Assembly (NCBI GenBank): GCA_023105745.1
Contig: JALGQZ010000002.1
Coordinates: 42,639,997-42,703,996 of the forward strand
Direction: 5' to 3'
Source: Austropuccinia psidii
Lineage: Eukaryota; Basidiomycota; Pucciniomycetes; Pucciniales; Sphaerophragmiaceae
DNA length: 64,000 bases
Shown one piece after another: positions 9,020-60,843 of this stretch (positions within the stretch are counted from its first letter, which is position 1; every line of letters starts with the position of its first letter). A program made the position numbers and the translations under genes. The notes under the pieces are model-generated. The model saw only the letters and a list, made by a program, of their open reading frames with translations. It was not told where the DNA came from and searched no databases.

Positions 9020-9910
9020 TCAATTCTTTGGTTTATTATTTTCAACAATAAACTTAATGTTGTCAATTTCTTTTTTGTTTTGCACAACAATTTTTGTTAA
9101 AGAAGATAAATTGTTATTTATTTCTTGTAGTGATAATAAACTGTTTTTAATTTCTTTTAGAGGTAATATACTATTTTTAATTTCTGTTAAAGTATTTACA
9201 ACATCTTTGGACAAGGTTATTTCTTTGGGAAATGAGGTTGTCTCATTCTTTGCTCTTCCTTGTCCTTGAATTCCATCAAGGTTCTGGCCATGTTGAAAAC
9301 ATTGTCCATGGCATCCTTTTGGATTCTTGGGATTCTGTAGCTTGGGGAATATGGTTTCCTCCAATGCTTTTTCTTGTTCTTCTTCCCTTCTTGGGGAAGT
9401 GGGTTGGCTTGAGGCTTGCTGGTAGAAGCTACTGGGGCTTCTTCCTTGGTTGCCTCCCTCTTTTTGGCATGATAATCCTTGATTTTTTTGATTTGAGGTT
9501 TGGATGACAGTGGATTCCATCCATTGGAGTATTTCACTATCTCCTCCTCTTTGAGGAACTTTTTCAGGATGTGCCAGGAGTTCATCACTCCTTGGTGTAT
9601 TTGAGGCAGCATTTCCCAGTCTTTGTCCTTGTATACTGTGTAATACTGCTTGTACTGGCTCATGTAGATGTCTATTTGAACCCTCTGAATGTGATTTGTA
9701 CCTATTTGAGTTACTCATACTTAGTTCCAATTCAGGCTCAGATATCATGGGCATTTCTGGGACTTGCCTTTGGGATAAGGCACTTCCTTGTGTGGATTCT
9801 GTTCCACTGGGGATATTGCCCTTTCTTTTCCCTTTTGAGGGATCAATTCTACCTCTGAGTCCAGCTTCATCTGATTGGATGGAGTATTGGGAACCTCTTC
9901 TGGTAGTCAT
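9020..9910 (-). CDS. Element B Gag N-terminal part (unspliced frame)
   Basis: A 296-codon frame starts MTTRRGSQYSIQSD, matching the starts in A (TRNGSNYSVQPD) and F (TRSGASY). Its ATG (9,908-9,910) lies inside a predicted intron (9,900-9,984), so only unspliced RNA would use it. The middle is Q/S/P-rich low complexity and overlaps the spliced accessory frame; the end is a repetitive coiled coil (EIKNSLLSLQEI-type heptads). It stops at TGA 9,020 but stays in frame with the capsid segment beyond. The same stop is absent in A and sits elsewhere in F, so I read it as a mutation. Confidence 0.75.
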   Translation of the reverse strand: MTTRRGSQYSIQSDEAGLRGRIDPSKGKRKGNIPSGTESTQGSALSQRQVPEMPMISEPELELSMSNSNRYKSHSEGSNRHLHEPVQAVLHSIQGQRLGNAASNTPRSDELLAHPEKVPQRGGDSEILQWMESTVIQTSNQKNQGLSCQKEGGNQGRSPSSFYQQASSQPTSPRREEEQEKALEETIFPKLQNPKNPKGCHGQCFQHGQNLDGIQGQGRAKNETTSFPKEITLSKDVVNTLTEIKNSILPLKEIKNSLLSLQEINNNLSSLTKIVVQNKKEIDNIKFIVENNKPKN

Positions 9911-10134
9911 AATTAAAGAATAAGAAAAAATAAAAGTATTTTAGAAAAAAATTCTTTTATGGCAATTTAAAAAGAGGTGCTCACCTTCAGAGTCTTGAAT
10001 GGTGGGCCCTGGAAAGTCTAATTTCTTAGCTTTCTTTCTTTTGGTGATAACTGGTGTTGGAGAACTTTGACAAGTTTCTTCCACCAATCTCTCAACAGTA
10101 GCTTGGTTGTCTTCTGTTGGGTTATCTTCAAACA
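9217..10134 (-). CDS. Element B spliced accessory protein overlapping gag (predicted)
   Basis: Predicted exons on the minus strand are 10,134-9,985 (150 nt), 9,899-9,768 (132 nt) and 9,701-9,217. Intron 1 is 9,984-9,900 (GTGAGC...CCAG, 85 nt). Intron 2 is 9,767-9,702 (GC donor GCAAGT...ATAG, 66 nt). The acceptor before the first exon is TTTTTTAG. All junctions are phase 1. The product is read in the +1 frame relative to Gag and ends in a basic segment, then YRIPRIQKDAMDNVFNMAR and TLMEFKDKEEQRM. Across intron 2 the residues GTNHIQRVQIDIY align without a gap with GLNHFQVAAIEIY in A. The function is unknown and no catalytic motif is visible. The initiating exon, probably in the LTR or leader, was not found. 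Confidence 0.62.
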
Positions 10135-12676: not shown

Positions 12677-14143
12677 CCACCAAGACCAGTCATGTTTACC
12701 ATGATCAATCCTCATTTTGTAATACCATTTCTTTGCAGTTCTGGTAAACAAACAGTGTAATTTTCCCACTATGATTTCATCAGGTATATTAAAGTCTTCT
12801 TGCAACATATCAATAGTTCTGATGAATTCAATATGGTTATATTCTCCTTCACCAGAGAATGTTGGCCATTCTTCTATTTTGGGAATATCTCTTGCAGAGT
12901 AGGCGTTTTCTCCTAAGAATGGAGTCAAACTTTCTTTGACAGAAAGTTTTTCTTCAGTCAAAGGTGTAGAATGTCTTGGCATATGTGGTTCATGATTCTT
13001 ATGAATTTGCTCCACACTTGCAATTATATCATTCTTCAATTTCTGCCTCTCACTGTCACTTTTTGCTAAATGTATAGCAAATTGATTGGTGTTCTTAACT
13101 ATTTGTAAGACATGGTCTTCAAGAGTTTTAAGTCTATCATTTACTTTAAAAATGGAAGGATCCTCTGTGTCATTATTTTGACATTGGGTCTGAATTCTTT
13201 CACAAGCATTGCTAATTGACTCAAGGGTGACAGTTGTCAATTGATGCCAATCAGAATGTTGCTTGTCATTTTTCTTTAAATTATTGATGTCTAATGTAAT
13301 TTGCTTCAACTTTGACTCAAGTTTGCCAATTTCTACACTAATACTTCTATGTACATCATTTATTTGCGTGGAAAAGTCCTGTTCATCCTTTCCTGCTCCT
13401 TGGCTGTGAATTCCATAAGAGTTCTGGCCATATTGAAGACACTGTCCACGGCTGAAGGCTCCAATTTGGGGATCCTGTACCCTTGTGGGTAAGGTCTGTG
13501 CCAGTTGGCTTTGCCTTTGCCCTTGCCTTGATGGTTCTTGGGACCTCTCTGTTTCTTTTGAGGTCCTTTGGGCTTGTCCTTGGGCGCTTCTGGAGCTGGT
13601 TTGGAGCTTGTAGATGCCACTGGTGCCTCTGTCTCCAAAGCTGGAGTCATTTCCAACTCTTTCTTCTGGTCTATGGATAAAAGACTTTGGTTCTTCAACC
13701 AATTCTTTATCTTTTTGACCTTGTCTTTGCAAGACAGGGGGCTCCATCCTCCTAAGAGTTCTATGGTCTTCTCCTGACCCAGAAAGCTCTTGATGTGTAA
13801 GTAAGAGTTCATGGCCCCCTGCCAAAGGCTTGGGCAGATTTCCCACTCCTCTTCCTTGGCTGCTCTGAACCATTTTTTGTACTGGCATTGATATATTTCT
13901 ATTGCTGCCACCTGAAAGTGGTTCAGCCCTGGAAATATTACCATAAATCAGTTCAGGCTCAGAATTTACGTCAAAATCTGTTGGTACAGACCTTGGGGAA
14001 TGGGGGGCAACTCTGGCATCCTCCATATGTGCCTTTCTTGTGGAAGATTTGGCACTTCTGGATTTGGTCTTGCCTCTTCCTTGTCCACATCCATCTGGTT
14101 GGACTGAATAGTTGCTTCCATTTCTGGTATGCACCATTTTCAC
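12677..14143 (-). CDS. Element A Gag N-terminal part (unspliced frame), cut by B
   Basis: This is the 5' part of the element A Gag-Pol frame. It starts MVHTRNGSNYSVQPD (an in-frame ATG lies two codons further upstream). The first ~260 codons are Q/S/R-rich low complexity overlapping the accessory frame. Then comes a coiled coil (VEIGKLESKLKQITLDI) and the start of the capsid-like domain (EEWPTFSGEGEYNHIEF). The start codon lies inside predicted intron 14,124-14,188, so it is available only on unspliced RNA. The frame is broken only by element B: at 12,677 it rejoins 1,971 in the same frame if B and one target copy are ignored. The extra residues after WSWWKS are LTR sequence. Confidence 0.82.
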
Positions 14144-14347
14144 GTCAATTTAAAGATAAAAGGTGAAAATATAAGATAAAATACACACCTTTTGGTGGTA
14201 ATTTAGCTTTTTCTGAGTTGAATAAGGTGCCTCTTTTAGCAATCTGCACCTCAATACTGTCTTCAGATTCTGCTTCTGAAGATTCTGGACTATTGATGTA
14301 TCTTTTACTGAGTCTGTTACCAGCTGCACAGTATTTGATTAAAGACA
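13360..14347 (-). CDS. Element A spliced accessory protein overlapping gag (predicted)
   Basis: Predicted exons are 14,347-14,189 (159 nt), 14,123-13,992 (132 nt) and 13,928-13,360 (569 nt with stop). Introns are 14,188-14,124 (GTGTGT...CCAG, 65 nt) and 13,991-13,929 (GTCTGT...CCAG, 63 nt). The upstream acceptor is CTCTTTAAG at 14,348. All junctions are phase 1, and the second exon is 132 nt exactly as in B. The product is in the +1 frame relative to Gag: an acidic N-part, a helical middle with GAMNSYLHIKSFLG and GGWSPL, an APVASTS stretch, a basic linker and YRIPKLEPSAVDSVFNMAR plus TLMEF. Without intron 2 the frame would hit TAA near 13,970. Function is unknown; a nucleic-acid-binding or Gag-assisting role would fit the basic linker, but that is a guess. 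Confidence 0.65.
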
Positions 14348-14716
14348 CTTAAAGAGAAAAAATATGATAAAAGAAATTATTTTTTCTGTTTTAAGATATT
14401 TTTAAAAGATTTTTTATGAATTTTATTATTTTTTAATATTAAAAAAATTATTCTTTTTAAAGAAAAAAAATTAAAATTTAAGATTTTGAATGAAAATTAA
14501 TTCAGAGTAACTCAAAGAATAATTTTATAAGTTTTTGGATGTGAAAAAGCCAGGTGTAAAAACAATATAAATTAAACCAAATTCCTCAATGAAAAGATTT
14601 TCAAAACAATTTCAAAAATAAGAATTATTTTAACTTTAAAATGAAAGAAAAAATTATTAAATTAATATATTTTAGAGCTTAAAAATATATTAATTAAGGG
14701 TAAAAGGTTCAAAAAA
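14348..14716 (-). other. Element A 5' leader, noncoding
   Basis: An AT-rich leader between the PBS-like block and the accessory exon. It shares a conserved stretch at 14,508-14,567 with the leader of element B and ends in a pyrimidine-rich acceptor (CTCTTTAAG). I see no ORF. Confidence 0.5.
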
Positions 14717-14734
14717 CACGGCCAGGCCCCCAAA
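14717..14734 (-). other. PBS-like block of element A
   Basis: CACGGCCAGGCCCCCAAA on the plus strand, directly before the LTR start TGTAAGATG. Identical to the block in element B. Confidence 0.6.
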
Positions 14735-16654
14735 TGTAAGATGTGACTATGAAACTGATGATAATATTATTATTCAACAGTACTATGTCTGTTCTTATGA
14801 AATATAATAATAAAGTATTGTTATAACCACAATTAAATAATTAAAAAAATTATTTCTTTCACGTGTTAAGAACTACTAGTGATTTTAACAGTGAGCAAGT
14901 AATTGTCTACTAGAATCAATTACAAGAAGAATTTAATAATAAAAACTTCTTTATTAAAATAATAAAATTATTTTAATACATAATTATCTTTTGCAAGAAT
15001 AATTATAAAGATAATTCTTGAAGAAAACTATTACTAGAGAAAAACTTTAAGAATTAAGAATAAATGACTTACTAATACTCCAAAGAACTTATTGATAGAT
15101 AAGAGTAGAGAAATTTGACGTAGAATTGTGGATTTAAGGGATCAAAAGGATTTATAACAGTATTACAACAATATATAGTTGGATTCTGGGATTTCACGTC
15201 TTTCTGGATTATTTGGAAAGATTTAAAACACTTAAGAATAGCTTTAACTAATACTTACTTGTTGGTAATAATGATTTAATAAATTGATAAGATGATGATA
15301 CGGAAAAAACAGCAAGAATAGGCTTCTTTTAAGTCAACAACAGCTCACAGAGGCGTGCCATGGAGCAAACTGAAAAACCAGTGAGTGAGAAAACAATAAA
15401 CCTTTTTGGATTAATGATTGCATCATCTGTTGTCACGTAAGATTATCATAATTACTTAATTGATGCTTTTACGTGACTACCAACCCCAATATGGTTAGGA
15501 ATAAAAAGAGTAACATCTGTAAATCTTCTTTTATTCTAAAAGAATCATTGATTTCTCAAAGTTATCAATGTTATTGCCAATTTCATCACAGGTTGTAATT
15601 ACTGTGAATTTTTGAAGATTCAGTGTTTCACGTAGAATGGTCAAAAATGGACTGTAAGTAAAACTTTGAATTTTACTAGTAAAACCATAATTCTTTTTGG
15701 TTTTACCATAGATGATACAGTTCTTCATTGGTCCTGAAAGTTTCAGGAAGATTCATTAAGAATTGTATTTTTAATGAATTTTTGAAGTTTTTACCTCATT
15801 TCTACGTAGAATTGCAAATAGCAGTATTTTGCTGGTTGCTATGAGGTAAATCAATGAATATGGATCCCAAAAGGGTTTAATTACTCTTTTAGGGTCTAGT
15901 CATGGAAAGTCATCAAGAATTGACGTGGTTACAGGAGCCTAAGTAGCTTATTACCTCCTTGGCACGTCAAAATAGCAGGTTATTTGCTATTTTTCTTATG
16001 ATTACAGTAGGTGTAACTTGGTAACCAAGTTCCCAAAGAGTTTTAGTTTACCAATTGGGCCAAGATGAGCCATGGATCCATGCTCTGGAGCTATCCACGC
16101 CTCTGAGGCCTCAGAAGTTGGGTACTCTGGCTCTCTTTGATGTCTTTTGTCCCCCTTGCCTAATTTTTACGTCAAAATAGTAATTTAAGCTTAAAGTGAG
16201 ATATCCACTATGGGTGTACCAAAAGTCCATGTAAGAATACCATGATATTAAGTGCTCAAAACATGCATAACACTATTCTTAGTGTATATATAACATGGGA
16301 TTTCTCACTTTCCCATTATTTTGGCTAAAAATCAAGAAAAACAAAAATTTTCACGGATCTTTTATGTGGTATTAATGATGTGGTATTGAAGTATTTTCCA
16401 TTTTACCACCTCAAATACTTAAATTGAGCTTATTCACTCTATGGAGCTACCCTAGGTGAATTTTTGTGTAGAATCCAAATCTGGTCTTAAATCCATGGAT
16501 TTACTTACTCAATAAAAAGTTATTCATCTTTTGTGAAATTGAAAATGATGAATTTTGGATATATGCATGACTTATGAGTTTTGAATAATTCAAAATTTCT
16601 TTTTAAGATAATTGTGGCCTATTTGGGTATGTAAAATATACCTCAAGGCTCACA
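14735..16654 (-). repeat. Element A 5' LTR
   Basis: About 1,920 bp from TGTAAGATGTGAC to AAGGCTCACA on the plus strand. The termini are shared with the B and F LTRs but the body is largely different, so it is a separate family. The partner LTR is outside the window. The right flank CCTTA (16,655-16,659) should reappear beyond its left end if the insertion is intact. Confidence 0.85.
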
Positions 16655-17437
16655 CCTTACAATTCCAGTCCATGACACTACTCTATTCCATTTAACAAGA
16701 GCTGTATCCATGGCTGTATTATCTTTGCTACATGGTAAAAACATTGGAGTTTTACTGAATCTGTCTACAATCACTAGGTAAGCATTATAACTTCTGTCAC
16801 CTCCTGGTGGTAGGCCGGTTACCCAATCCATATGGAAAATTTCCCAAGGTCTGCTGGGTTCTTGGGTTTTGATCATATTTCCAAGTCTTTTGCCTGTAGA
16901 TTTATTTGCCTTTTTACATCTGTCACAGGTTTTGCAATACTCTGCAACATCTTTCTGCCACATTGGCCACCATATGCAGGTCTTTACTTTTTCTCTTGTT
17001 CTGTATTCAGACAGATGTGCTGAAAAGGGGATTTCATGGAATTCTTTCAGTACAAGATTGATTAATGACCTGTCCACCACTTTCATGACACATGTGTACT
17101 TGGTTCTGTGGTCAATTTTACCATCCAGTAGGTGAAGTCTTCCTTCATCATAAGATTTCTTCCATACTTCATCCAAGGCATGTATGACAGAGTTATTCTT
17201 ACAGTATTTGTTAAGTAATTGGAACAAGATGCTACAGTTTTTATCTTGAGTGTAACTGTGTCTTACTTCTTCAAAGAAGGTGGTGTTCAAGTCTGTAACA
17301 CTTATTCCTTCTATTGGGATCTGTGGGGAAGCTTCTTCTGGCACATAAGCAGGATTATCAATATCATTTGGTAATGGCCATCTGCTTTGTTCATCTGCAT
17401 TTTTATGAAGATTCCCATCTTTATGAACAATAGTCAT
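16655..17437 (-). pseudogene. Element C integrase fragment
   Basis: A 264-codon frame (including a few LTR codons at its end) covering the post-RNase H linker, an HHCC-like zinc region (EFHEIPFSAH ... CDRCKK) and the first catalytic Asp of integrase (HMDWVTG). It is truncated by the element A LTR before the second catalytic residue. The zinc region differs from F: GH has become AH with SA in place of SG. Confidence 0.8.
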
Positions 17438-31186: not shown

Positions 31187-32741
31187 GCCACTCCATCCTG
31201 GTATTGTGATGGATATCTTGCCTTATTCATCAACATGGCATCTGGTTTGATGTCATCTGATTGATATGGATTTTCCATAACTTGGCCTTGTGGTTGGGGC
31301 TTCAAGTTATGGTAGACATTAAACAATTCGTTTATGTCTTGGTCCAGACAATCCCTGTCCCTTTTGCTGTGGTGTTGTTCTTCAAAGGCTAGATTCAGTC
31401 TTTTGTTAGTTTTTTCAGAGGCTTTGCTCAATTGAGCATGTCCTTCTTGAAGATTTTTAACTATTTTTTCCATTAGGGCTTGTAATTTTTTCATCCTCTC
31501 ATGGCTGGCTTCAAGTTCTGCAAACTGCTTTGCAGATTGCTCAGCATATTGGGAGTTTGTAACCAAAGTGTATCACTTTTGATGTTACTCTCAGATGTGA
31601 CAATGTTATGTTCAGTCTGAGTGGGGGTAATGTTTCTATTACTAGGACTACTGATTCTAGAGTGGTTTGAAACTACTTCTGCTTCTTGTGCACTTCTTTT
31701 ACCAAATCCAACAGCTTCTGAATCATAGGGTCTGACTCTTTCCTCCTGTGGTTGAAGGAGGTTTTGTTCTTGCCCTTCTTTCCTTGTCTTCTCCTGGAAC
31801 CTTCCTGGAATTGTGAAGAACGGTGACTCTTGGCCACTGATCTGCTGTTTTCTGCATGGTGTGAAGCCACCGGAGAGCTGATTTGGCCTGCTCCCTGTGA
31901 GCCTGAAGGAATCTGAGTAGTCCCTGTCTGGGTTAACTGTTCTTATATAGCTTGGATAGTGGCTTAATTCTCCCTTATCCTCTGTGCCCATGCCTCCAGG
32001 AGTCTGAACTGCCTGGTAGGATTCCAACCTTTGGTGATTACCATAAGGTCTTTGAAGTCTATCTCTTTGAGACAGATCTTTTCGCAACTTGCTCCCAGTT
32101 CTGCCCAGTGAGATGCCAGGTTGAACCTCTTGTTGTCCATGCTCCATTGGAATAAGTCCTTGAGGAGTTGGTGGAACTGAAGAACTTGATCCATGTCTTT
32201 CCAGTCCTCTGCTTTGAGGTCTCCATTGAATGAAAGTGTGAATGGCAAGGTTGATATTCTCTCCCTCATTTTTTTGCCATCCACTACTGTGTCAAAGGTG
32301 TCCTCTTTCAGGTCTTCTGGTTCTGGAGAAACCTTCTCTGTCCTCTGGTTGGTTCCTTTGGAAGCCAAGATCTCTGAGGTGTACAGGTGACATTTTAGTG
32401 TTTTCAAGCAGCAAAAACTTTCTGTTCTTAGGGTATTTACCTTTGACTGTGCCTTGTACAAATTTGTTGTCTGGTGATTTGGGCAATTTACCTTTAGAGG
32501 TTACAAATGGGTTAATTATAGTAATTTTCCCTGTACAAGATATCAAGGTTGGTTTACCTTGTATTGAAGCAGAATTTCATGGTTTTCTACTCTTCTGTGT
32601 GGCGATGGGTGTCCAATTTTTTGCTGTTATCAGGCCTTCACTGTGCCTCTTCCCTTTGCCTTTGCTGCCCTCTGGCTCTGAGGGTGTCACTGGTGTGTTG
32701 GCCTGTGACTGGCTTTCAAGTGGTATGAAGCTATCTTCCAC
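31159..32741 (-). pseudogene. Element D Gag N-terminal part and remains of the overlapping accessory frame
   Basis: 31,159-31,566 is a coiled-coil Gag segment. 31,491-32,147 is the low-complexity Gag frame. In the +1 frame relative to it lie 31,964-32,461 (KGWNPTRQF recalls the GWSPL block of A) and 31,673-31,870 (basic stretch, then MIQKLLDLVKEVHKKQK at the position of the VFNMARTLMEF block). An acceptor-like TTTTGATTCAG at 32,742 precedes an open exon-like stretch. So D appears to share the overlapping design of A, B and F, but decayed, and I could not fix its introns. Confidence 0.5.
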
Positions 32742-47766: not shown

Positions 47767-48528
47767 TGTCACAGGGGCTCTTTGAAATGAAGAGGGCCTG
47801 GCACTCAGTAAACTGGGACTCACTTATGGAGGGCTCAAGGGTAAGATAAGGATGGATACACTTAAGAGTGTGAATAATGAATTACTAAAGAATAAAAATA
47901 AGAAAGCAGCAACAAAGAATAAGAGTAAGAGAAAGAAGAGCCAACCACAAACAAGTCCAAGTCCACTGTTTCAACCTGTCAGAATGGAAAGAGAAGGGTT
48001 AATAAGGATATGGCCACCCAACTCATACTGTACAGGCAAAGAAAGAAAAAGGGCAAAGACTAACTTAAGATTAAATAAATATAATACCCAGAATATAAGG
48101 ATAAGAATATTCAGATAATAATAAATCAACTAAATTAATTAACTGGGGAAAAGTCCCCAGGGGGGAGAAAGAGGGGCTGGTATATGTGAGAATCACCAGC
48201 CCTGATCCAGAGAAGAATTTTCATGAGAATAATTGATTGTTGAATTGAGTCTGGCCAATACAGGTCCTGTACAGTTGTACAGGACCTGTACAAGAGGTGT
48301 GGTGTATTTGAGTGATCATACAGTTTCATACTGGTGTATTGAAACTGTATTGGGTGAATCCATCCTGTACAAGTATTGACAGGCTGTATTGATGTACCAA
48401 ACTGTATGCATGTTTCAGAATGAAGATTGCTGAAACTGACTGCTGATGCAGATACTGGATTTGCTGATTTGAGGTGTTTGAGTGGGTGTATGAATGAATA
48501 CCCTTACCCCTGATGGATGGTTGTTACA
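47767..48528 (-). repeat. Element G 3' LTR
   Basis: 762 bp, TGTCACAGGGGCTC to GGTTGTTACA on the plus strand. It differs from the other LTR at, for example, CTCTTTGAAA against CTCTTCGAAA, GTGTGGTG against GTGTGTTG and GCTGATTTG against GCTTATTTG. Confidence 0.96.
48261..48288. promoter_or_regulatory. 13-bp perfect inverted repeat in G LTR
   Basis: CAGGTCCTGTACA and its exact reverse complement are separated by GT. The same structure is in the other LTR at 57,758-57,785. The role is unknown: transcription-factor site, RNA hairpin or 3'-end signal are all possible. Confidence 0.7.
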
Positions 48529-48541
48529 GTATCCCCCTCTT
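48529..48541 (-). other. Polypurine tract of element G
   Basis: The minus strand reads AAGAGGGGGATAC directly before the LTR start TGTAACAACC. Confidence 0.75.
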
Positions 48542-49449
48542 GAAACTGGTGGGCTCCTGAACACCATAATACCCTGCCACTGTTGAGTGGCATCTCAATA
48601 TCCCCACATTTTTTCAAAAAAATTTTTCTTTTTAATTTTCTTTCCTCTTGACCATTATCCTGAAAATCCTTCATTACTTCTTCCCTGCCAAATTCAATTG
48701 ATTCCCCCCTTTCTTTTCAAGTTTGAGTGAGTATTCCTTCCAGAGTATGCAATTCTTTTCTTTTGATTCAATCAGCCATGTCTTGGGATGTGGCCTTGGA
48801 ATATATCCCAGAATAAAGGCCATTGAGCACTTGTGCTCAAAAATTGGTGCCCAATGAGTATATGACTTGTACTCATTGGCCCAGACTTAATCCATTCAAT
48901 GAACCTCCAAGGGGTCTTGTCCCCATGATCCAAGGAATTGGCCTCAGGCAGCCCTCCCAGTGGGTTTTGGACTGTGGCCTCCATCTTGAGTGATCTTGAT
49001 GTATCTTGCTTTTTATGGCCTTTTTGGCCTTGCTGGGTGTTTTGGTGATTGGGGCAATTTTTTGATTTTCTGGGTTTTTTGGCGATAATAGGCCTTTTTG
49101 ATGTTTTGGGGTCCTACGGTCCGCGGGCCGTACGCCGTGGTTCGCGGTCCGTGGGGGCTATTGGAGGCCCCCAGGACCAAAATGGAGCCCCTGGGCCCAA
49201 ATTTGCTGGGGACCCAGGGTGACCAAGGGGCCCAAAAATGGCCCAATTCCAAATTTCACCATATATGTCCTGGATCCATTGAAGGGGTCCAGGACCATCA
49301 AGATCTTGGCCTTCCCCCAAAGTTGCAGAGGAGGCCCTGGGTGATGAGTTTAGCCCCAAAGGGGTGTGAACCTTCACCTTAGAGACTTTGAGGTGGGGCA
49401 TAATTGAGTTATGGCCCCAGTTCCTTGAGTCAACTTTCTTTTTCTTGAT
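48542..49449 (+). promoter_or_regulatory. Upstream region and GC-rich island of the antisense gene
   Basis: A noncoding stretch between the polypurine tract and the plus-strand gene. 49,110-49,400 is strikingly GC-rich for this window. It carries three CGG-N-CCG palindromes: CGGTCCG at 49,117-49,123, CGGGCCG at 49,124-49,130 and CGGTCCG at 49,145-49,151, about 300-390 bp before the candidate start codons. Zn2Cys6 proteins typically bind paired CGG triplets, so this is a candidate promoter with autoregulatory sites. That link is inference. Confidence 0.45.
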
Positions 49450-50744
49450 GTGGAGTGGATTGATTCTGACGTCTTGAATCTTCTGCTTGCACTTTCTTCA
49501 GTTATGAGTTCCAAACTGACTGAACTCACTGAATCTTCCCCTTCTGCACCGCCACCGTCTGTTCTTCATGGTTCTGGCGTCTTCAGTCGATTGTCTTCTC
49601 CCTCCATGGTGTCTTCTGGCCATTTTGACCCCTCCCAAACATATGATGGGTTCAGAGCAGTTGAAGTTCTTGATCCTGCCTGTACTGAGTGTTTGGCCAG
49701 GGGGAAGGATTGCTTTCAACATTACAATCCTCGATCGTCAAAATGCCATTTCTGCTTTATTGGGAAGAAGCCATGCCGCCATACCGGATCAACCTTGTCC
49801 CGGGTCAAGAGGCACTTATGGAGTAGGAAGGATGGGCCTTATGGGCAGGAATTCCCAATTCTTGAGGAACCTACCCCTGATGCCACTTCTGGATTTTCTC
49901 AATGTGAGTGGTTTGCATTTCTTGGTTGAGTTGATGCTGATATTTTGATGTAGTGACTGGTTCCAGGCAGAGGGATGTGGCCAGGTGGACTAATGTTGGA
50001 GGGCCCATTCCGATTGGTGGTAGGCCCATCCACTACAGCTCAGAAATTTCCATTTCAAGGACCAATGCTGATGGAGTGGTGAAAGTAGTGAAGAAGCTAA
50101 GAAGAATTGTTGATTCCCCATCAGATCCAGATGCTGAAGGAAGTGATGAGTTGGATGGTGAAGAAGTTCAAGTTATTCCTCATTCAAGTGGCCATCCATC
50201 CAGCAATTCCTCTTCTCAACCTCTTGCCAACCCCAGATTCCAAAGCCAAGTGATTCCCAGCACTCCAAGAACCTTCCAACCAATGCTTGCTTCAATTCCT
50301 ACAACCCTTCCTCCTCCATCACCAACTACTTCCCACACCACCAGGCCTGCCTTGAATCCAGCAGTAAGACCATCTCCAGTTCAACAGCCCAGAAACTCAC
50401 CCATAAAAACCTCCCGTCAACTCCAACCTGTGGCCAGCTCCAGCAGAAGAAGAGATGGATTGTCCCCTTTGCCGTTTCCTGCCGCTCAAGTATTCCAAAG
50501 AAGAGAACGTTGGCCTATCCGGGTTACCAGAGAAGATCCCAACGCGGCTAGTGAAAATCAAGATGCTGTGGCCAGATTGTTCAGGAGAGTTGATAGAAAT
50601 AGCAGAGAGGTGATTATGTATGCCAATGACAGGATGATTCCAGGTACTGCTTCTGAAGAAATGGCTGCAAAATTTGCCTGGTATGAAGATGAGTTGATAA
50701 ATGATTTCCAGAGAACTTTTGATGACTTGGGTAGAGATAACTAG
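49450..50744 (+). CDS. Antisense spliced gene in element G: Zn2Cys6-like protein
   Basis: Exon 1 is 49,450-49,903 (alternative ATG at 49,504), the intron 49,904-49,953 (GTGAGT...ATGTAG, 50 nt) and exon 2 49,954-50,744. The join is phase 1 and gives 414 residues (396 from the second ATG). Cysteines 78, 81, 88, 99, 102 and 109 form CX2CX6CX10CX2CX6C, the spacing of fungal GAL4-type binuclear zinc clusters, with basic residues between them. A conserved-looking block (TGSRQRDVARWTNVGGPIPI) follows, then a long P/S-rich region and an acidic C-terminus. I recall similar rust predicted proteins. The gene lies inside the LTRs on the opposite strand to gag-pol. A DNA-binding regulator is likely; a Zn-binding protein of another type is possible. 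Confidence 0.82.
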
Positions 50745-51524
50745 TTTCCTTTTCCTTGTTTGTGTTTGGCTTGCCTTCTATCCCCACTCTTATAACTACC
50801 AAAAAAAAATAAAAATTAAAAAAGATAATGGAACCTCCCAATACATGATTTGAGGAGGGGATGCTGCTGCTTTAAAGAAATAAAAGAAAGAAAATTATAC
50901 AAGTAAAGAAAGAAAGAAAAATAAAAGAATAAGAGAAAATGAGAGTAAAGAAAGAAATAAAGAAAAATTCCTGATGGCTGGTCCTTCTTGTGGTGAGTTG
51001 CTTGATTCTGGCCAAGAAGTGTCTGAAAAATGAAAACCAAGCATTTGATGCTCACAGAGTGGCCAAGGTGATGTTTTACAAGAAGTAGAACCCTCAGGGA
51101 TGCATACCAGGAGATGGAACTTACTTTCATAACTTCCACTCCCCACCAAGCACCATAAGACTGAAATAAATTGCCATAAATGCCTTCTGAAATGAATTGC
51201 CATAAATGACTACTGAAATGAATTGCCGTAAATGACTTGAAGTAATGAATGTCTTGAATTATGATGATTGGCATAAAATGAAAAGATAATAAAGAAAGAA
51301 AATGAAACATAAAGAAAGAAAACATTGGGCCATATCTTGATAAGGTCCAAATGGAGGGTATTGATGTTGTATGCTTCCTGAACCTGTCCAAAGAAATGAC
51401 AAGTGCTCACAAAGTGGCCAAGGTGATGCTTACAACAACATATGGGTAGAATACCCCCTTAAAGTTGCATGCCAGGAGAGGAACTTACTTTCATAACTTC
51501 TTCTCCCCACCAAGCACCATAAAA
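50745..51524. other. Noncoding spacer between the antisense gene and pol, with short repeats
   Basis: It holds A/G-rich runs (AAAGAAAG) at 50,870-50,970 and about three copies of a ~30-bp unit (CTGAAATGAATTGCCATAAA) at 51,160-51,232. An imperfect direct duplication links about 51,050-51,150 with 51,409-51,520, sharing GTGGCCAAGGTGATG and AACTTACTTTCATAACTTC. Both converging transcripts presumably end here; no terminator could be fixed. Confidence 0.5.
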
Positions 51525-54500
51525 TCAAACTCTTGAGGTATTTGGACCAGGCTTGTCTGGATACAATGAGTGGAAATCCTTGACAAGGTCTGGTGAGTTG
51601 GTAAGGTTGGAAGCTGGTTCCCAAGTGGTTCTTTCTGGGTCTTCACTGAATCCTTTCCACTCTACAAGATACCATAAATTACCTCTTTTGAGTTTTTAGT
51701 CCAGAACCTGAGCCACTTCCCATTCTTCTTGCTCTTCCACTAAAACTGGTGGTGGCGGCAATTGATGACAATTTGGGATAGTTGAATGCTTGACTGATTC
51801 TAATAAGGACACATGGAATACAGGGTGAACTGTCTTCCATTGCTGAGGCAACTTGAGGTGATATGCATGGCTGCCAATCTTCTTAAGAACTTCAAAGGGT
51901 CCCAACCATCTTTCTGATAATTTCTTGGTGGGTCTTGTTGTCTTGATGTTCTTGGAAGCTAGCCATACTTTGTCCCCAGGTTGGAAATCAGGTGGAATTG
52001 CCCTATTTCTATCTGCATACTTCTTGAATCTCCTTATTGCTGACTCCAATTCTTCTTTGACAACTTGCTGTACTGATTGGAGTTTTGTTGATAACTTTCC
52101 AGCAGGTGAGTCTTGAGAAATATGGATTGAGTCAAAGCTGGGATTTCTTCCATAAATGGTGAAAAAAGGTGATTGCTTGGTTGATGAATGTTCTGCATTA
52201 TTATAGGCAAATTCAGCCAAAGGGAGCCAGGTGTGCCAGTCATCTTGATGATAGCTGACATACATCCAAAGGTACTGTTCTAGTATCTGATTTACCCTCT
52301 CTGTCTGTCCATCTGTTTAAGGGTGAAATGCAGTTGACAGGTCTCTTGATATCTTGAGCTGCTGACATAACTGGGTCCAGAATGATGAAACAAATAAGGA
52401 ACCTCTATCACTAACAATACTTACTGGAAGGCCATGTTTGGAAAATACATGACTAATGAAGATTTGAGCTAAGTCCAGTGCAGTGATTGTGCCATAAGTT
52501 GGAATGAATGTTCCCATTTTTGAGAATCTGTCTACAATTACTAAGATTGAGTCAAAGTTGTTTGACAGGGGCAATTGAGTGATGAAGTCCATTGATAATG
52601 AATTCCAAGGACCAGATGGAATTTGAAGAGGCTTGAGTAATCCAAACTTCTTATGGTGGATGTTCTTGTTTCTTGAACATTGCTGACATGAGGACACATA
52701 GTCCTTGATGATTTGATTCATGCCAGCCCAATAAAAATCCCTCTTGATGAGCTTGAGGGTCTTCTCCTGGCCAGGATGGCCAGCCAATGGTGAATCATGA
52801 CGCCTTTGAAGAATGTCCAATTGAACTTCATGATTGCTTGGAATAACTACTCTATCTTTGAACAATAATAATCTTGCTTGAGGTTCAAGAGAATAGTCTG
52901 GGACTGATTCTCCTCTTGCTAATTTCTTGAGGATCTCCTTATAGTCTTTGTCTTGCCATACTTGTCTTTGAATCTGATCAACCAAATCTGAGAACATTTC
53001 AACTTTTATGGAAAAGAATCTTGACTCTTGAATTTCATTTTGCTTGAGAACTTGATGAAAGTTTTGAGGATTCTTGCTGATGAAATCCACCCCCCTCTCT
53101 GGGTACACGTCGTCCCGACGTGACAAGGCATCTGGTAAAGTGGCCAGCCTGCCTGGGCGGTAAGTGATAACAAAGTGAAATCCAGACAAAAATTCAGCCC
53201 AACGGGCTTGACGACGAGTAAGGACTTTAGAAGACATAAAATATTGGAGAGAACAATGGTCTGTCAAGACCTCAAAGGAATCAGAAAGAGAAAGGAGAAA
53301 GGCTCTCCAGCACTTGAGAGCCCAAACTATGCCAAGGAGTTCCTTGTCATGAATTTCATAGTTGAGCTCAGCTGGCAAGAGCTTGCGACTATCAAATGCA
53401 ATGGGATGCTTTCCTGAGTCATTCACCTGACTCAGTACAGCACCCAAGGCATAATCAGAGGCATCAGTCTCTACAATGGTTGGAAGATAAGGATTAAAGT
53501 GAGAAAGGATAGGAGCAGAGGTGAAAGCTTCTTTGAGTGCTTGAAACTGACTAAGAGCTTCCTCATTGAAGATGAAAGGAGAATCTTTTTTGAGAAGGGA
53601 AGTGAGAGAAGTGATTTTTTTGGAATAATTTTTAATGAAACGACAATAAAAATTGGCAAAGCCAAGAAAAGATTGAAGAGCCTTGATGTTTTTGGGCTGA
53701 GGCCAATTGAGGACTTGCTGAACTTTTGAAGAATCCATCTTGAGGCCATCACTTGAAACAACATAGCCCAAGTATTCCACACTTGAAGCATGGAATACAC
53801 ACTTGGAGGCTTTGGCAAACAGATTATTGTCCCTCAGTCTTTGGAGGACAGAGGCCACATGTTTGACATGTTCCTCCTCAGAACTGGAAAAGACCATAAT
53901 GTCATCTAAATAAACCACAACAAACACATCCAAAAAATCTGCAAAGATATCATTTACCAGATTTTGGAAAGAAGCAGGAGCATTGGTCAAACCAAATGGC
54001 ATGACCAAGTACTCATAACTGCCATATTTGGTTCTAAAGGCAGTTAAGTGCTCATCCCCCTCTTTGATTCTCAGAAGGTTATATGCACCACGCAAATCTA
54101 TCTTGGAGAAGATAGTGGAGCCGTTGAATACGGTAAGAAGCTGGTTCATAGGAGGAACAGGGTATCTGTTCTTCCTAGTGACAGCATTGAGTTTGCGGTA
54201 GTCAACACACAAACAAAGACCTCCATCCTTTTTCTTGACAAAAAGGACAGGTGCTCCTGTTGAAGAGGAGCTTGGTCTAATGAAACCTTTCTCTACATTC
54301 TCTGAAATGTAGGCCCGCAGTGTTTCTGACTCTTGATTTGATAATGAGTAGATAACACCAATTGGAGGTAGAAGACCCTCCAATTCGATATGGTGGTCAC
54401 AGGCGCGGTGTGGAGGAAGTTTCTCTGCTTTCACCTTGGAGAATACATCCAAATATTGGTGATAAGCAGGAGGAACAACCTTCAACACAGTTTCAATTTC

Positions 54501-55226
54501 TTCTGGCTCTTCCTCCTCATCCCACTGCTCCTCCAGGGATGCATGAAAGGATAAGGGAGGAAGGTCCATATCCCCTTGGAAGAGATGAAGTGAAGATATG
54601 GCAACATCTTCTCCAACATCCTTTATCTCTTTGAAGACTTCATCTCTTGATGGAAGTAATGACTGAGAGGGAATAATGGAAGGGATATGGACAGAAGAAG
54701 GAAGGGAAGGTGTCTTAAGTTCACCAACCAGAGCAACACTGTTGACAGCAGTGGCAAAGTCATTACTAGTAGGAGGAATAATACCACTAGAATCCTTATG
54801 ATTAGAATCATAGGTGATCAATCCATTTTTCCAATCAATAATGGGATTAAAATGGTAAAGGAAATCATAGCCCAATATCAGGTCTTCTCCCTTGGGTGAA
54901 TCTATGATAAAGAAGTCCCATTCAAAGCTTGGGAAGGAAGGCAAGTCAACTACCCACTTGGTATAATGGGTGATGAACAAGGCAGGGGATTCATTAGAAT
55001 CCAAAATGAAAAGAGGGATCTTTTCAGGGAGCTCTGACAGAGTCAATGAATACTTGAGAACAAAATTCTTTGCAATAAAAGAGTTTGTAGCACCAGAATC
55101 AATGAGAATACTATAAAAAATATCAGAGACAGAAGAAAAAATAAGAAATTTTAAAGATTTCTTGACACTAGTATTCAGAGTGCACAATTGTGCTCTTGAA
55201 GGAAATAAGTGAGAACCATTGAACAC
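51525..55226 (-). pseudogene. Element G Pol: protease, RT, RNase H, integrase, chromodomain
   Basis: The frame is -1 relative to gag. The order is protease DSGA (about residue 42), RT with YLDD (about 437; note LCLCVDYR, where LRLCVDYR is usual), RNase H (VETDASDYALG, about 585), HHCC integrase zinc region (RRHDSPLAGH ... CQQCSRNK), DDE core (SMDFITQLP, IVSDRGSLF, GQTERVN), a GPF segment (ERWLGPFEV) and a chromodomain (WYLVEWKGF ... TTWEPASNL) ending at TGA 51,525. Two stops break it: TAA at 52,317 in the near-universal HPQTDG motif (Gln codon lost) and TAA at 51,696 just before the chromodomain. The frame is maintained across both. Confidence 0.92.
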
Positions 55227-55253
55227 ATCATGATTCCCACTCAGGCTTTTCCC
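55215..55253 (-). promoter_or_regulatory. -1 ribosomal frameshift signal between gag and pol of G
   Basis: The slippery heptamer G GGA AAA (minus strand of 55,247-55,253) is in the gag zero frame, two codons before the gag TGA (55,241-55,243). Six nucleotides later a stem GTGGGAA/TTCTCAC (7 bp, one G-U, 18-nt loop) can form. Slippage by -1 enters an open frame that runs directly into Pol. Confidence 0.72.
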
Positions 55254-56602
55254 TGCTTGCTAGGGAAGCCTCTTGATGATGACCCAGGCTTGTTCTGAGG
55301 TCTCTTGAAGCATTTTTCAATTGGGTGCTTGCCACCACAATAAGTACACAACCCTGCTTGAATCCTCCTCTCCTTTTCAGAACCGATTAATTTATTGTCC
55401 TTATTGAGGAGAGCAGCATGGGGTTTGTCCTTTGAAGATTGAAATTGCTTTCCCTTCTTATTATTCTTCTGATGAGGCCTCTTTTGAAATGAGTTTTGAG
55501 GAGGCCTAGACTGATTGGATCCACTGACTGGAGGCTTCTTTTCTTGATTGCCACCCTTTTCCTTTTGCCTCTCATGATATCTTGTGTCTAATTCCAGAGT
55601 GACATCCATAAGTTCTTGAAGAGTATCAAAAGTTCCAGGGTGAGAAGCCAACTGATCCAATAATCTTGATGCCAATCCTCTTCTGTAAACATGGATATAA
55701 GCTCTTTCCCCCCAATCTCCAATTCTTGACATTAAGCTTCTGAAATCTGCTATGTACAAGGAAACATGACCACTTTCCTTCATCCTCAAATTGTCCAACT
55801 CTTGTTCAGCTTTCCTTACTTCATTGGGGTCACCAAACAGAGTGAATAATTGAGATTCAAACAATGGCCAATTATTGAGGAGGTAGGAAGGGTCTTCATT
55901 GGAAATATTTGAGAGGTAAGGTTCAATCCATTTGCCAGCTCTACCAGTGAGAAAAGAAGTTGAGTAAAGAACTTTCTTCCTGTCAGAGAAGAAATTTGCT
56001 GGATCATTATGGAAAATTAGTTGACAGGATTGGATAAATCCTCTCAACCTATGAGCTTGAGTACCATCAAAAGAATCAGGTGCCTTCATGGATGGAGTCT
56101 TGAAAGCAGGGGCTTTGGAATTGTCCCTGGGGGCAACTGCTTGAGTGAGTTGTCCCATGAATTGAGTCATCTGCTCCATCATCTTGAGGAGACTTGGATC
56201 AGTTTGAGAGACAAGAGGTTGACTAGAAAGGGCTAGATTAGAACCCTGAGGCACCTCTGGAACATTTGCCAAGGCATCTGCCACTTCAGTTTCCCCAGAA
56301 TCTTCCTCTTCCACAGACTCTTCCCCCTCATCATCTTCAACTTCCCCTTGTCTTGCTCTTGCACCTTCAGACATGCCAGGGTAGCCACCCAAAAGTCCAG
56401 AGAAAGATCTTGATCTTCTAGATTTCATTCCACCTCTTCTTGAGGGTGCTGCTCCTTCCATTGGTGGTCCTCTGTCTAAATTTACACTCAGTTGATGAAC
56501 TGATGGTGTGCGGTCAAGAGGAGCCCTTTCTGTAGGAGTGAGAACAGCTTGAATTCTTTGGGATCTAGTATTTTTGGCTGGGGGACTATGCTGAACTGGC
56601 AT
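55241..56602 (-). CDS. Element G Gag
   Basis: A 453-codon intact gag. The N-terminus is basic and low complexity (KNTRSQRIQAV), followed by an acidic stretch (EVEDDEGEESVEEEDSGE). The capsid-like region runs over about residues 165-350 (FDGTQAHRLRGFIQSCQLIF ...). A basic linker precedes a zinc knuckle CTYCGGKHPIEKC near residue 425, a CX2CX3HX4C variant. It ends at TGA 55,241; Pol follows in the -1 frame through the slippery heptamer. Gag is the only uninterrupted sense gene of G. Confidence 0.92.
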   Translation of the reverse strand: MPVQHSPPAKNTRSQRIQAVLTPTERAPLDRTPSVHQLSVNLDRGPPMEGAAPSRRGGMKSRRSRSFSGLLGGYPGMSEGARARQGEVEDDEGEESVEEEDSGETEVADALANVPEVPQGSNLALSSQPLVSQTDPSLLKMMEQMTQFMGQLTQAVAPRDNSKAPAFKTPSMKAPDSFDGTQAHRLRGFIQSCQLIFHNDPANFFSDRKKVLYSTSFLTGRAGKWIEPYLSNISNEDPSYLLNNWPLFESQLFTLFGDPNEVRKAEQELDNLRMKESGHVSLYIADFRSLMSRIGDWGERAYIHVYRRGLASRLLDQLASHPGTFDTLQELMDVTLELDTRYHERQKEKGGNQEKKPPVSGSNQSRPPQNSFQKRPHQKNNKKGKQFQSSKDKPHAALLNKDNKLIGSEKERRIQAGLCTYCGGKHPIEKCFKRPQNKPGSSSRGFPSKQGKA

Positions 56603-57248
56603 TTTGAAATAATGAAATAGAACTTGATGGTATTAAGAAGAATAATCAAATTTGGCCAAATCAATCACAATAAAATCTTGATGAATCTTGGGGAATCAAT
56701 TCAAATCTTGAGGAATCAAATTCAATCAACAGTCAAATAAATTCAATCAATCAACAATCAAATCAAATCAAATATCAATAATCTTGAGGGAGTCAATAAT
56801 CAATCAATATTCAATCAATAATCAATCAATAAGTGTCTTCAATATGAAATCAAGTCTTGAGGAATCAATCAATCAGTTCAAAATCTTCAGAAATCAATTC
56901 AATATCTTGAGAGTTCAAAGTCAATAAATCCAATAAATCCTGAATCAATAACCCAAATGAATCCCAATGAATAATCCAATCAATTAAACCAATCAATAAT
57001 TCCTAGATAAAACCTGAATAAGAACACAGAAAAAATTTGATTGATAAAAGTAAAATGAAGTGATGAAATGGTCAGCAATGATTGAGAAAAGAAAAGAATC
57101 AATTTTCATAAGAGTGAAATGAGTGAGATGAAAATTGATAAGAGAGAAAAAAAATCATAATCATTAAGATCATTAAATCATAAAAGGAATCATAATTGAT
57201 GAATGAGAGAAATGAATATAAATGAGTGAAAAGAAAGAATCAAATATG
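56603..57248 (-). other. Element G 5' leader, low complexity
   Basis: The leader is dominated by AATC/AATCAAT words at 56,640-57,010, and by A/G/T-rich sequence (GAATGAG, GATGAAAT) at 57,040-57,250. No ORF. Such a weakly structured leader could aid scanning or packaging; no specific signal was recognised. Confidence 0.55.
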
Positions 57249-59266: not shown

Positions 59267-60595
59267 TTAAATTCTTGTGCCCTCATTTTGATTTAGAGGT
59301 GTAGACATTCTTGGTAAGGTGTTCAGTATTTGTTCAATTTCATTCATTTTACTGTTGCTACACCTTTGGGAATTTCTGTATTCATGTTGGAAGCTTTGTA
59401 TTAAATTTATTACTTCAATTTTATACATGTCTTCTTTATGTGTAAGTTCTTGCCATAACTCTGTTTGTCTTGTATTATCAGCAGTGACTTGATTCAATTT
59501 CATTGATAATTTTGATACTTCTTCTTGTGAAGCATCAAAACACTTTTTCAAGGCAATGGTATATGTCTTTACTTCAGTAAATGAATTTGAAATGTCATCA
59601 AGGACTTTCTTGTTATCTGTCTTGATAATATTTATGGCTTGTTTAATTCTTGTTTCAATTATGTCATCAATATTGAATTTAGAATATTTATCTGTTAATT
59701 CTTTAATAATGGCAGATTGTTCATTTATTTTATTAGAAGAATTATCATTATTGGAATTTTTAATTGTTCTCAAAACTTTTTCAAAACACATAAGTGTTTC
59801 ATTAATTTGGCACAGACTCAGGTTGTTTGTTTTAATGTTGTTACAAATGGTTTCATTTTTATCAGAAAGATGTTTTTTCACGTCATTTATAGCATTATAC
59901 AACTCTGGGATGGAATCAAATATGTCAGAAATCATTTCTGGAACCTTAATCTGGCTTCCTCCTTCTTCTGTAATTCCATCATGGTTCTGGCCATCTGAAA
60001 TACATTTTCCATGGCATCCTGCTGAATCTTTGGGATTCTGTAGCCCTGGCTGTAAGGTTTTGGGGCTGGTGCCTTCCCTTGGCCCTTGTTTGGAGCTTGT
60101 GGCTGCTTTTTCACGTTGGAATTGCTGCTGCTGGCCACTGGGGCTGTTTTTGGCACTGGTTTGGGTGGTGGAGGGTTGTTTTTCCTCCATTCTAGTGTCA
60201 AAAGCATCATGTTTTTCTTCTCCATCAATGGATGCCATCCATTGAGCAATTTGCAAGTGTTGGGATGGCCCAAGAATTTTCTTACTGTCAGGTAAGAATT
60301 CATGCAATTCTTCCACAGGTCTGCAAGGATCTGGTACTCCTTGAATTGAAGTGCATTGTTGTATGCACTGTGGCTGGCTTTGTATATGTCCACAGAGGCT
60401 TGTTGTGGCGGTGTCAGCTCTTTTTGAAGGTAAAATAGTATTATCAGCTTCAGAATGACCCAATTTAGTTGTTTGGAAGTCATCAACTGACCCTTTTCCT
60501 TCTGTACCTGGTTGGCTTCTGCCATAATCACGTCTATTACCTTTTTGGGAGCTGCTTGAGGGGTTGTAGCTGGCTCCTGACCTGGTTGAAGGCAT
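59267..60595 (-). CDS. Element F Gag N-terminal part (unspliced frame)
   Basis: 442 codons from MPSTRSGASYNPSSSS, ending at TAA 59,267. The ATG lies within predicted intron 60,582-60,645. Residues about 1-215 are low complexity and overlap the accessory frame. Residues about 220-430 are coiled coil (KKHLSDKNE, VLRTIKNSN, MKLNQVTAD). It is in the same frame as the capsid segment beyond the stop. No equivalent stop exists in A, so the TAA is probably a lesion. Confidence 0.78.
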   Translation of the reverse strand: MPSTRSGASYNPSSSSQKGNRRDYGRSQPGTEGKGSVDDFQTTKLGHSEADNTILPSKRADTATTSLCGHIQSQPQCIQQCTSIQGVPDPCRPVEELHEFLPDSKKILGPSQHLQIAQWMASIDGEEKHDAFDTRMEEKQPSTTQTSAKNSPSGQQQQFQREKAATSSKQGPREGTSPKTLQPGLQNPKDSAGCHGKCISDGQNHDGITEEGGSQIKVPEMISDIFDSIPELYNAINDVKKHLSDKNETICNNIKTNNLSLCQINETLMCFEKVLRTIKNSNNDNSSNKINEQSAIIKELTDKYSKFNIDDIIETRIKQAINIIKTDNKKVLDDISNSFTEVKTYTIALKKCFDASQEEVSKLSMKLNQVTADNTRQTELWQELTHKEDMYKIEVINLIQSFQHEYRNSQRCSNSKMNEIEQILNTLPRMSTPLNQNEGTRI

Positions 60596-60843
60596 AATTA
60601 TGGTTAAAAAAGGCTTAAAATAGTATTTTTACGTCAAAAACTTACTATTGGCCAAATTCTTAGCCTTCTGAAGAGTATTACTTATGTCCAAGTTAATTAA
60701 TTCAGAAGATATTGGTTCAGGCTGGTTATTTTGAGTCACAATAACAGTACTATTATGATCAGAATTAACAGTACTGGCAGGGATAATGCTGGTTACTGTT
60801 GAGGCTGTTTCAATGTTTTCTTGTCTTACCACGTTGTCAGACA
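59932..60843 (-). CDS. Element F spliced accessory protein overlapping gag (predicted)
   Basis: Predicted exons are 60,843-60,646 (198 nt), 60,581-60,492 (90 nt) and 60,419-59,932. Introns are 60,645-60,582 (GTAAGT...CCAG, 64 nt) and 60,491-60,420 (GTCAGT...AAAG, 72 nt). The upstream acceptor is TTAATTTTAG at 60,844. All junctions are phase 1 and both internal exons are multiples of 3, as in A and B. The frame is +1 relative to Gag. The C-terminal block reads YRIPKIQQDAMENVFQMAR and TMMELQKKEEARL, and GWHPL replaces GWSPL. After intron 2, ELTPPQQASVDIY aligns without a gap with A and B. Here the region would stay open even if intron 2 were retained. Function is unknown. Confidence 0.65.

What the first reader, a model, noticed from the sequence alone, without database searches (positions are those of the whole stretch)
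13360..14347. Splice-shifted second protein overlapping gag in element A
Two small introns (14,188-14,124 and 13,991-13,929) join an upstream exon to the +1 frame of gag, while the Gag start codon lies inside the first intron. Unspliced RNA would give Gag-Pol and spliced RNA a separate protein ending in VFNMARTLMEF...FPRK. Both frames are open over roughly 190 codons. Intron 2 itself encodes SEPEL in the Gag frame, also seen in B. This is a compact retrovirus-like split of genomic and spliced messages that I do not know to be described in fungal Gypsy elements.
Basis: partly seen in the sequence, partly recalled or inferred. Interest (0 to 1): 0.92.

Follow-up and report, generated by a model that had tools for sequence, protein, structure and literature searches.

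The report
Spliced second protein overlapping fungal Gag
A very abundant jumping gene of a rust fungus hides a second, unknown protein inside its Gag gene, and splicing its RNA switches from Gag to that protein; rare DNA copies that lack the two introns exactly indicate that this splicing happens.

Summary
Confirmed and extended. The window lies in a ~1 Gb genome; all 360 listed protein relatives are from the rust Austropuccinia psidii MF-1. In element A the two introns (14188-14124, 13991-13929) join three exons into one open frame (286 codons in A, 255 in B, 258 in C) in the +1 frame of gag. The Gag ATG lies inside intron 1 in A, B, C and older element E. Decisive evidence is genomic: of five copies fetched, three lack both introns exactly, one lacks both plus one base, one lacks intron 2 alone. 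Lineage variants of B are mostly synonymous in the spliced frame (33 S, 17 N), not in the Gag frame over exon 3 (10 S, 25 N). Gag's frame still stays open (0 stops against 12-14 expected). The window leaders of A, B and C contain no ATG, so Gag's is first on unspliced RNA. Correction: exon 1 has no start codon; it begins at a conserved acceptor as AG|TG. I infer an upstream intron 0 that builds the start codon A|TG; this is not shown. The protein matches no Pfam family; its function is a guess. No RNA reads were examined.

The parts
14736..16661 (-). 5' LTR of element A (upper end approximate)
   Evidence..TTACA end followed by TTTGGGGGCC shared with B and C
14783..14784 (-). candidate donor of the inferred intron 0 (A|GTAC) in the LTR end; weak
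   Evidence: A|GTAC at the same place in A, B, C and in 13 of 15 aligned rows; low donor score; use not shown
14138..14735 (-). ATG-free leader of A (includes exon 1 and most of intron 1)
   Evidence: 0 ATG in 598 nt, 6.6 expected from dinucleotide shuffles; none in 21 of 28 parsed A copies
14189..14347 (-). ORF2 exon 1 of A; begins TG directly after AG (14349-14348)
   Evidence: 0 indels in 30 copies
14124..14188 (-). intron 1 of A (65 nt, GTGTGT..CAG), contains the Gag start codon
   Evidence: 30 of 30 copies; exactly absent in L066, L067, L069
12674..14137 (-). Gag(-Pol) frame of A, ATG 14137-14135, cut by insertion of element B
13992..14123 (-). ORF2 exon 2 of A (internal in-frame ATG at 14121)
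13929..13991 (-). intron 2 of A (63 nt, GTCTGT..CAG); has stops in the ORF2 frame; Gag-coding when retained
   Evidence: 30 of 30 copies; exactly absent in L065-L069
13360..13928 (-). ORF2 exon 3 of A with its stop
9985..10134 (-). ORF2 exon 1 of element B
9900..9984 (-). intron 1 of B (85 nt here, 84-88 in copies); Gag ATG at 9910
9768..9899 (-). ORF2 exon 2 of B
9702..9767 (-). intron 2 of B (66 nt, GC..AG)
   Evidence: GCAAGT in 29 of 30 copies
9217..9701 (-). ORF2 exon 3 of B
60646..60843 (-). ORF2 exon 1 of element C
   Evidence: same exon in MF-1 gene models
60582..60645 (-). intron 1 of C (64 nt); Gag ATG at 60595
60492..60581 (-). ORF2 exon 2 of C
60420..60491 (-). intron 2 of C (72 nt, open in the ORF2 frame)
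59932..60419 (-). ORF2 exon 3 of C
32441..32740 (-). putative exon 1 of the old element E (begins CAG|TGGAAGAT)
   Evidence: MF-1 models
32374..32440 (-). intron 1 of E (67 nt); Gag ATG at 32393
31673..32373 (-). second exon of E's overlapping frame (stops in this copy)

Best explanation
A lineage of Gypsy-type LTR retrotransposons in this rust genome carries an accessory gene (here ORF2) that overlaps the first ~190 codons of gag in the +1 frame and is reached by splicing. Unspliced RNA, whose leader has no AUG before Gag's in the window copies, is translated into Gag-Pol and carries the primer site. Removing intron 1 deletes the Gag start codon and joins exon 1 to exon 2 in the ORF2 frame; removing intron 2 takes out stops (A, B) and leaves Gag's own frame unchanged. 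SUPPORTED BY DIRECT SEQUENCE EVIDENCE: the exon frame is conserved and constrained, splice sites are conserved, and copies lacking both introns exactly exist, so partly spliced element RNA was made and reverse transcribed. INFERRED (about 0.6): an intron 0, from a donor in the LTR end over the primer site to the conserved acceptor before exon 1, builds the start codon across the junction (A|TG), so that fully spliced RNA encodes a 255-286 residue protein and lacks the primer site. INFERRED, weak: the product (helical domain, basic C-terminal part with pI 10.2-10.5) is an RNA-binding accessory or regulatory protein acting on the element's own RNA or particles.
For: Introns 14188-14124 and 13991-13929 exactly absent in L066, L067, L069; L068 lacks both with one extra base, L065 intron 2 alone. 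Other deletions of 10 nt or more in 58 A/B copies: 20, all in leader or intron 1. Spliced ORF2 open in 25/30 A, 22/30 B, 4/4 C copies fetched. Shared variants of B in the exons 33 S: 17 N (P 3e-10 under neutrality), Gag frame over exon 3 10 S: 25 N (P 0.32); all exons, shared against single variants, P 9e-8. Between A-type copies (7 of 15 pairs examined) exon 1 pN/pS 0.08-0.41, exon 3 0.11-0.53, Gag over exon 3 0.96-1.91. Exon 1: 0 indel events in A and B, leaders 25 and 72. Gag frame kept open: 0 stops against 12-14. Leaders of the window copies A, B, C: 0 ATG against 6.6, 8.5, 6.1 expected (at most 1 of 2,000 shuffles as low). MF-1 gene models use the same junctions: junction 2 in 49 of 120 A-type, junction 1 in 13 of 120 C-type, QGTVKETL junction in 20 of 120 E-type proteins.
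Against: No RNA read was examined. Intron 0 and the A|TG start are inferred: 24 of 24 exact genome matches with ATG at that edge keep the adjoining leader (110-160 nt seen) and have a changed acceptor; none lacks intron 0 (A-type exact pattern only). The candidate donor A|GTAC scores low. ORF2 could start at internal in-frame ATGs. A has too few shared variants to test: exon 3 2 S: 3 N in ORF2 but 3 S: 2 N in the Gag frame, i.e. no contrast or the reverse; exon 1 of A has only singletons (2 S, 10 N). Exon 2 is mixed between A-type copies (pN/pS 0-0.89). For B exon 1 alone, shared against single variants is not significant (P 0.11). 7 of 28 A and 13 of 28 B copies have an ATG in the leader, and 27-54 of about 1,270 same-length slices of the window have as few ATGs. 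In C-type MF-1 models a retained-intron-2 pattern is commoner (51 of 120) than the spliced one (24 of 120). B, C and E were not tested for intron-less copies because the genome search stopped answering. MF-1 models may be ab initio.
Confidence: 0.87

Rival explanations
1. ORF2 is made without splicing, by leaky scanning from the ATG at 14121, 16 nt after the Gag ATG.
For: In A that ATG lies close behind Gag's and begins many MF-1 models (52 of 120 listed A-type proteins begin at it or its variants; 24 are 232 residues).
Against: Retained intron 2 puts stops in the ORF2 frame in A and B; exon 1 looks coding though it would be untranslated; intron-less copies indicate splicing.
Confidence: 0.04
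2. Rival to the intron 0 step only: splicing is real, but RNA with introns 1 and 2 removed and the leader kept is the ORF2 messenger; translation starts at the first ATG of exon 2 and exon 1 is leader.
For: Leader and exon 1 of the window copies contain no ATG, and the first ATG of such an RNA is in the ORF2 frame in A, B and C (read); the five intron-less copies keep the leader; 0 of 24 candidate copies lack intron 0.
Against: Exon 1 is open in A, B and C, has no indels in 60 copies, favours synonymous change in B (8 S: 3 N, P 0.001) and between A-type copies; the pyrimidine-AG|TG edge is shared by four elements. RNA without the primer site could hardly leave DNA copies, so their absence is expected.
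Confidence: 0.3
3. The intron-less copies are chance deletions and the introns are gene-prediction artefacts.
For: The dinucleotide AG flanks the junctions, and the family is very large (45,913 first-look candidates).
Against: Deletions are base-exact at GT..AG sites in copies 89-96% identical to each other, while 20 other deletions of 10 nt or more fall only in leader or intron 1.
Confidence: 0.03
4. Splicing only silences Gag by removing its start codon; the second frame is incidental.
For: Intron 1 removes the Gag ATG in A, B, C and E.
Against: The spliced frame carries most of the constraint in the overlap (for B, 103).
Confidence: 0.03

Closest known systems
Spliced subgenomic RNA of BARE (Copia, barley; PMC3735527, abstract and section list seen)
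   Same: A retrotransposon makes separate unspliced and spliced RNA pools with different products.
   Different: In BARE splicing favours Gag alone; here splicing removes the Gag start codon and opens another protein in another frame.
Retroviral splicing for env or regulatory proteins, including insect gypsy env (recalled; only the listing of PMC4276936 seen)
   Same: Unspliced RNA for Gag-Pol, spliced RNA for another protein; overlapping frames; a basic accessory protein from multiply spliced RNA.
   Different: The extra protein overlaps the start of gag, shows no recognised envelope feature and matches no Pfam family.
Ogre/Tat plant Gypsy elements with an extra ORF and an intron (recalled; only the listing seen)
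   Same: Gypsy element with an additional ORF near gag and use of splicing.
   Different: From recall, that ORF lies upstream of gag and the intron in pol; here the extra ORF is overprinted on gag through small introns.
A. psidii MF-1 'hypothetical protein O181_...' records
   Same: Same protein families and, in part of the gene models, the same junctions.
   Different: The names shown do not connect them to a retrotransposon or to an overlap with gag.

Membership tests
Ty3/Gypsy LTR retrotransposon | pair of LTRs | tested here: met
   B LTRs 12671-10647 and 3996-1972, 99.2%; C LTRs 62899-61067 and 44386-42541, 98.4%
Ty3/Gypsy LTR retrotransposon | RT and RNase H upstream of integrase | tested here: met
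   B: RVT_1, then RT_RNaseH, then Integrase_H2C2 and rve
Ty3/Gypsy chromovirus branch | chromodomain at the integrase end | tested here: inconclusive
   Chromo E 0.023, under the Pfam cut-off
Retrovirus-type split of genomic and spliced messages | element RNA spliced at defined sites, removing the Gag start | tested here: met
   indirect: intron-less genomic copies of A type; no RNA examined
Retrovirus-type split of genomic and spliced messages | splice donor in the LTR or 5' leader | tested here: inconclusive
   weak candidate A|GTAC only
Endogenous retrovirus | envelope protein | tested here: inconclusive
   no Pfam match for ORF2; region after integrase not studied
BARE-like spliced Gag RNA | spliced RNA encodes Gag | tested here: not met
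   intron 1 contains the Gag ATG in A, B, C, E
MIT (ESCRT-III binding) domain | three-helix MIT fold | tested here: inconclusive

The most novel reading that the evidence does not exclude
A complex-retrovirus-like regulatory circuit in a fungal Gypsy lineage: a start codon that exists only after LTR-to-exon splicing (A|TG) makes an early message without the primer site for a basic helical protein that then controls export, packaging or release of the intron-retaining Gag-Pol RNA, as Rev/Rex-type proteins do; a possible MIT-like fold would point to ESCRT.
Probability: 0.15. Interest if true: 0.92.

Novelty: new variant of a known kind. Interest (0 to 1): 0.74.

Why it matters
It would make fungal Gypsy elements users of splicing and of an overprinted accessory gene, traits associated with retroviruses, in a gigabase plant-pathogen genome that PMC8063080 (passages) describes as expanded by Gypsy elements. 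It also assigns many 'hypothetical proteins' of the rust proteome (911, 827 and 897 hits in three searches) to mobile-element genes of one layout, and gives a natural record of splicing in DNA.

Tried and rejected
Chance open frame: rejected. Gag as the constrained frame in the overlap: not supported (for B, 103), although Gag over intron 2 of B shows 4 S: 0 N. Homology of E's overlapping protein to that of A/B/C: not shown (single sequence; profile 1% probability); E shares the layout only. Relatives by sequence in Pfam or PDB: none above cut-off. Fold search among viral models: nothing with E <= 0.001. E-family model: pLDDT 51, not searched. Genome copies lacking intron 0: none among 24 exact matches. 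Other rust genera: not tested; each protein search lists only its best 120 hits, and all 360 are from A. psidii MF-1. Papers (open-licence library only): the searches listed nothing whose title or abstract start describes this in fungal elements (83, 100 and 118 listed no paper); passages of PMC12210899 and PMC8063080 were seen, where the word gag was counted 0 times. Primer-site, U5 and splice-consensus names are recalled; no tRNA match was tested.

Full report
What is there. The window holds several nested Gypsy-type LTR elements on the minus strand. A (5' LTR about 16661-14736) is cut in its gag by B (LTRs 12671-10647 and 3996-1972, 99.2% alike), and C (LTRs 62899-61067 and 44386-42541, 98.4%) by another element; an older element E has LTRs 34584-33319 and 26356-25079, 85.7% alike. 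Pfam finds RT, RNase H and integrase in B. The listed relatives of the overlapping proteins are all from Austropuccinia psidii MF-1: 120 of 120 in each of three searches, out of 911, 827 and 897 hits. The genome that holds the window has 1.015 Gb, close to the 1,018 Mb primary assembly given in PMC8063080 (passages). The species name is therefore an inference.

The overlapping frame. The +1 frame of gag in A (13944-13360) is conserved in B and C at 40% and 36% identity. Codon position 3 of this frame is the most divergent in A-B, A-C and B-C; that is codon position 1 of Gag, so in the overlap the second protein is the more constrained one. Yet the Gag frame has no stop over exon 3 in A, B or C, where synonymous recoding of the second protein gives a mean of 14.37, 12.21 and 12.35 stops and no stop-free case in 20,000 recodings each.

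Exons. In A, removal of 14188-14124 and 13991-13929 gives one frame from 14347 to 13360. The homologous sites in B are 9984-9900 and 9767-9702 (GC..AG), in C 60645-60582 and 60491-60420. With one base (A) in front, the exons read as 286, 255 and 258 residues without a stop. Thirty A copies (99-100% alike) and thirty B copies (95-100%) were aligned. The spliced frame is open in 25 of 30 and 22 of 30, the Gag frame over the overlap in 26 of 30 and 21 of 30. B's intron 1 varies from 84 to 88 nt, so exons 1 and 2 share one frame in all these copies only if it is removed. In C intron 2 is open in the ORF2 frame; among 120 listed C-type MF-1 models a pattern of retained intron 2 is found in 51 and of removed intron 2 in 24.

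Selection. In B, variants shared by two or more copies (lineage changes) are 8 S: 3 N in exon 1, 3: 1 in exon 2 and 22: 13 in exon 3; in the Gag frame over exon 3 they are 10: 25 and over intron 2, which only Gag uses, 4: 0 (tests). B singletons have pN/pS 0.45, 2.42 and 1.01 in exons 1-3. Exon 1 alone, shared against single, is not significant (P 0.11). In A there are too few shared variants: exon 2 2 S: 1 N, exon 3 2 S: 3 N, and in the Gag frame over exon 3 3 S: 2 N, which does not show the contrast; A singletons have 1.62, 2.87 and 0.45, and all exon 1 variants of A are singletons. Between A-type copies, in 7 of the 15 possible pairs of A and L065-L069 (pairs are not independent), pN/pS is 0.08-0.41 in exon 1, 0-0.89 in exon 2 (one pair without synonymous change), 0.11-0.53 in exon 3 and 0.96-1.91 in the Gag frame over exon 3. 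Exon 1 has 0 indel events in either family, leaders 25 (A) and 72 (B); leaders are rich in A/T runs, which inflates that contrast.

Intron-less copies. A genome search with MF-1 protein P0099 gave 45,913 first-look candidates of which 150 were scored; its five best matches run through the intron 2 region without a stop. All five were fetched. L066, L067 and L069 lack both introns to the base, L068 lacks both plus one base at junction 1, and L065 keeps intron 1 and lacks intron 2 exactly. They are 89.2-95.7% identical to each other and count as at least three events if each of the two nearest pairs is one. All keep the leader. In 58 other A and B copies, 20 deletions of 10 nt or more were seen, all in the leader or intron 1. 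Base-exact loss at GT..AG sites is best explained by reverse transcription of partly spliced RNA. In the four doubly intron-less copies the Gag ATG is gone.

Start codon. Leaders of the window copies of A, B and C (598, 736, 473 nt) have no ATG, against 6.6, 8.5 and 6.1 expected from shuffles; E has 3 against 14.1. As a looser control, 39 of 1,269, 27 of 1,266 and 54 of 1,271 same-length slices of the window also have none. Across copies, 21 of 28 parsed A, 15 of 28 parsed B and 4 of 4 C leaders have none. So Gag's ATG is the first on unspliced RNA of the window copies. Exon 1 has no ATG either. Its left edge is a pyrimidine-rich stretch and AG|TG in A, B, C and E, and 11 of 120 listed C-type MF-1 models begin exactly at the next residue. 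I infer an intron 0 whose donor follows an A; A|GTAC in the LTR end of A, B and C (13 of 15 aligned rows) is a candidate with a low donor score. Twenty-four exact matches in the genome have ATG at this edge; in all, the adjoining 110-160 nt are leader and the AG is changed, so none shows intron 0 removed. A messenger with the leader retained could instead start at internal ATGs and leave exon 1 untranslated; the signs of constraint on exon 1 argue against that as the only product.

Product. pI 9.3-9.5, with a basic C-terminal 95 residues (pI 10.2-10.5). The AlphaFold2 model (71 sequences, pLDDT 63) has helices at 47-136 and 201-226. MIT or Vps4 entries stand at the head of two structure comparisons, below the level that means kinship. 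No Pfam or PDB sequence relative was found. An RNA-binding accessory role is a guess from charge and layout.

Fourth element. E places its Gag ATG (32393) just before an intron 1 acceptor (32374) and has an overlapping frame with a basic end, but profile comparison shows no kinship to the protein of A/B/C.

Novelty. Spliced messages and overlapping accessory genes are known in retroviruses (recalled) and spliced RNA in some plant elements (BARE abstract). A protein overprinted on the start of gag and switched by removing the Gag start codon was not found for fungal elements in the searches. I rate it a new variant of a known kind.

Noticed in passing
L067 and L068 (at about window-A position 14721), and 3 of 30 aligned A copies: An extra stretch (102 and 92 nt in L067 and L068) repeats the LTR end and primer-site region, giving two primer-site-like stretches in tandem.
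   Followed up: partly
window 9767-9702: Intron 2 of element B is of the GC..AG type in 30 of 30 copies, GCAAGT in 29.
   Followed up: yes
window 34584-25079: Old element E has the same layout, with the Gag ATG inside intron 1, although its overlapping protein shows no profile similarity to that of A/B/C.
   Followed up: partly
window 9020-9022: The window copy of B has a stop in the Gag frame between the overlap and the capsid region, although its LTRs are 99.2% alike.
   Followed up: no
window 47767-58025: A different Gypsy-like element (LTR 762 nt, 99.6% alike) sits inside C; tblastn with the A and B overlapping proteins found nothing in it.
   Followed up: no
window 14783-14745, 10703-10660, 61110-61080: Directly after A|GTAC the LTR ends of A, B and C each seem to contain an inverted repeat with different sequence (read by eye).
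   Followed up: no
model m3e3dd2b78fc7, residues 42-129: MIT or Vps4 entries (ESCRT-III binding) hold most top places of two structure comparisons without reaching significance.
   Followed up: partly
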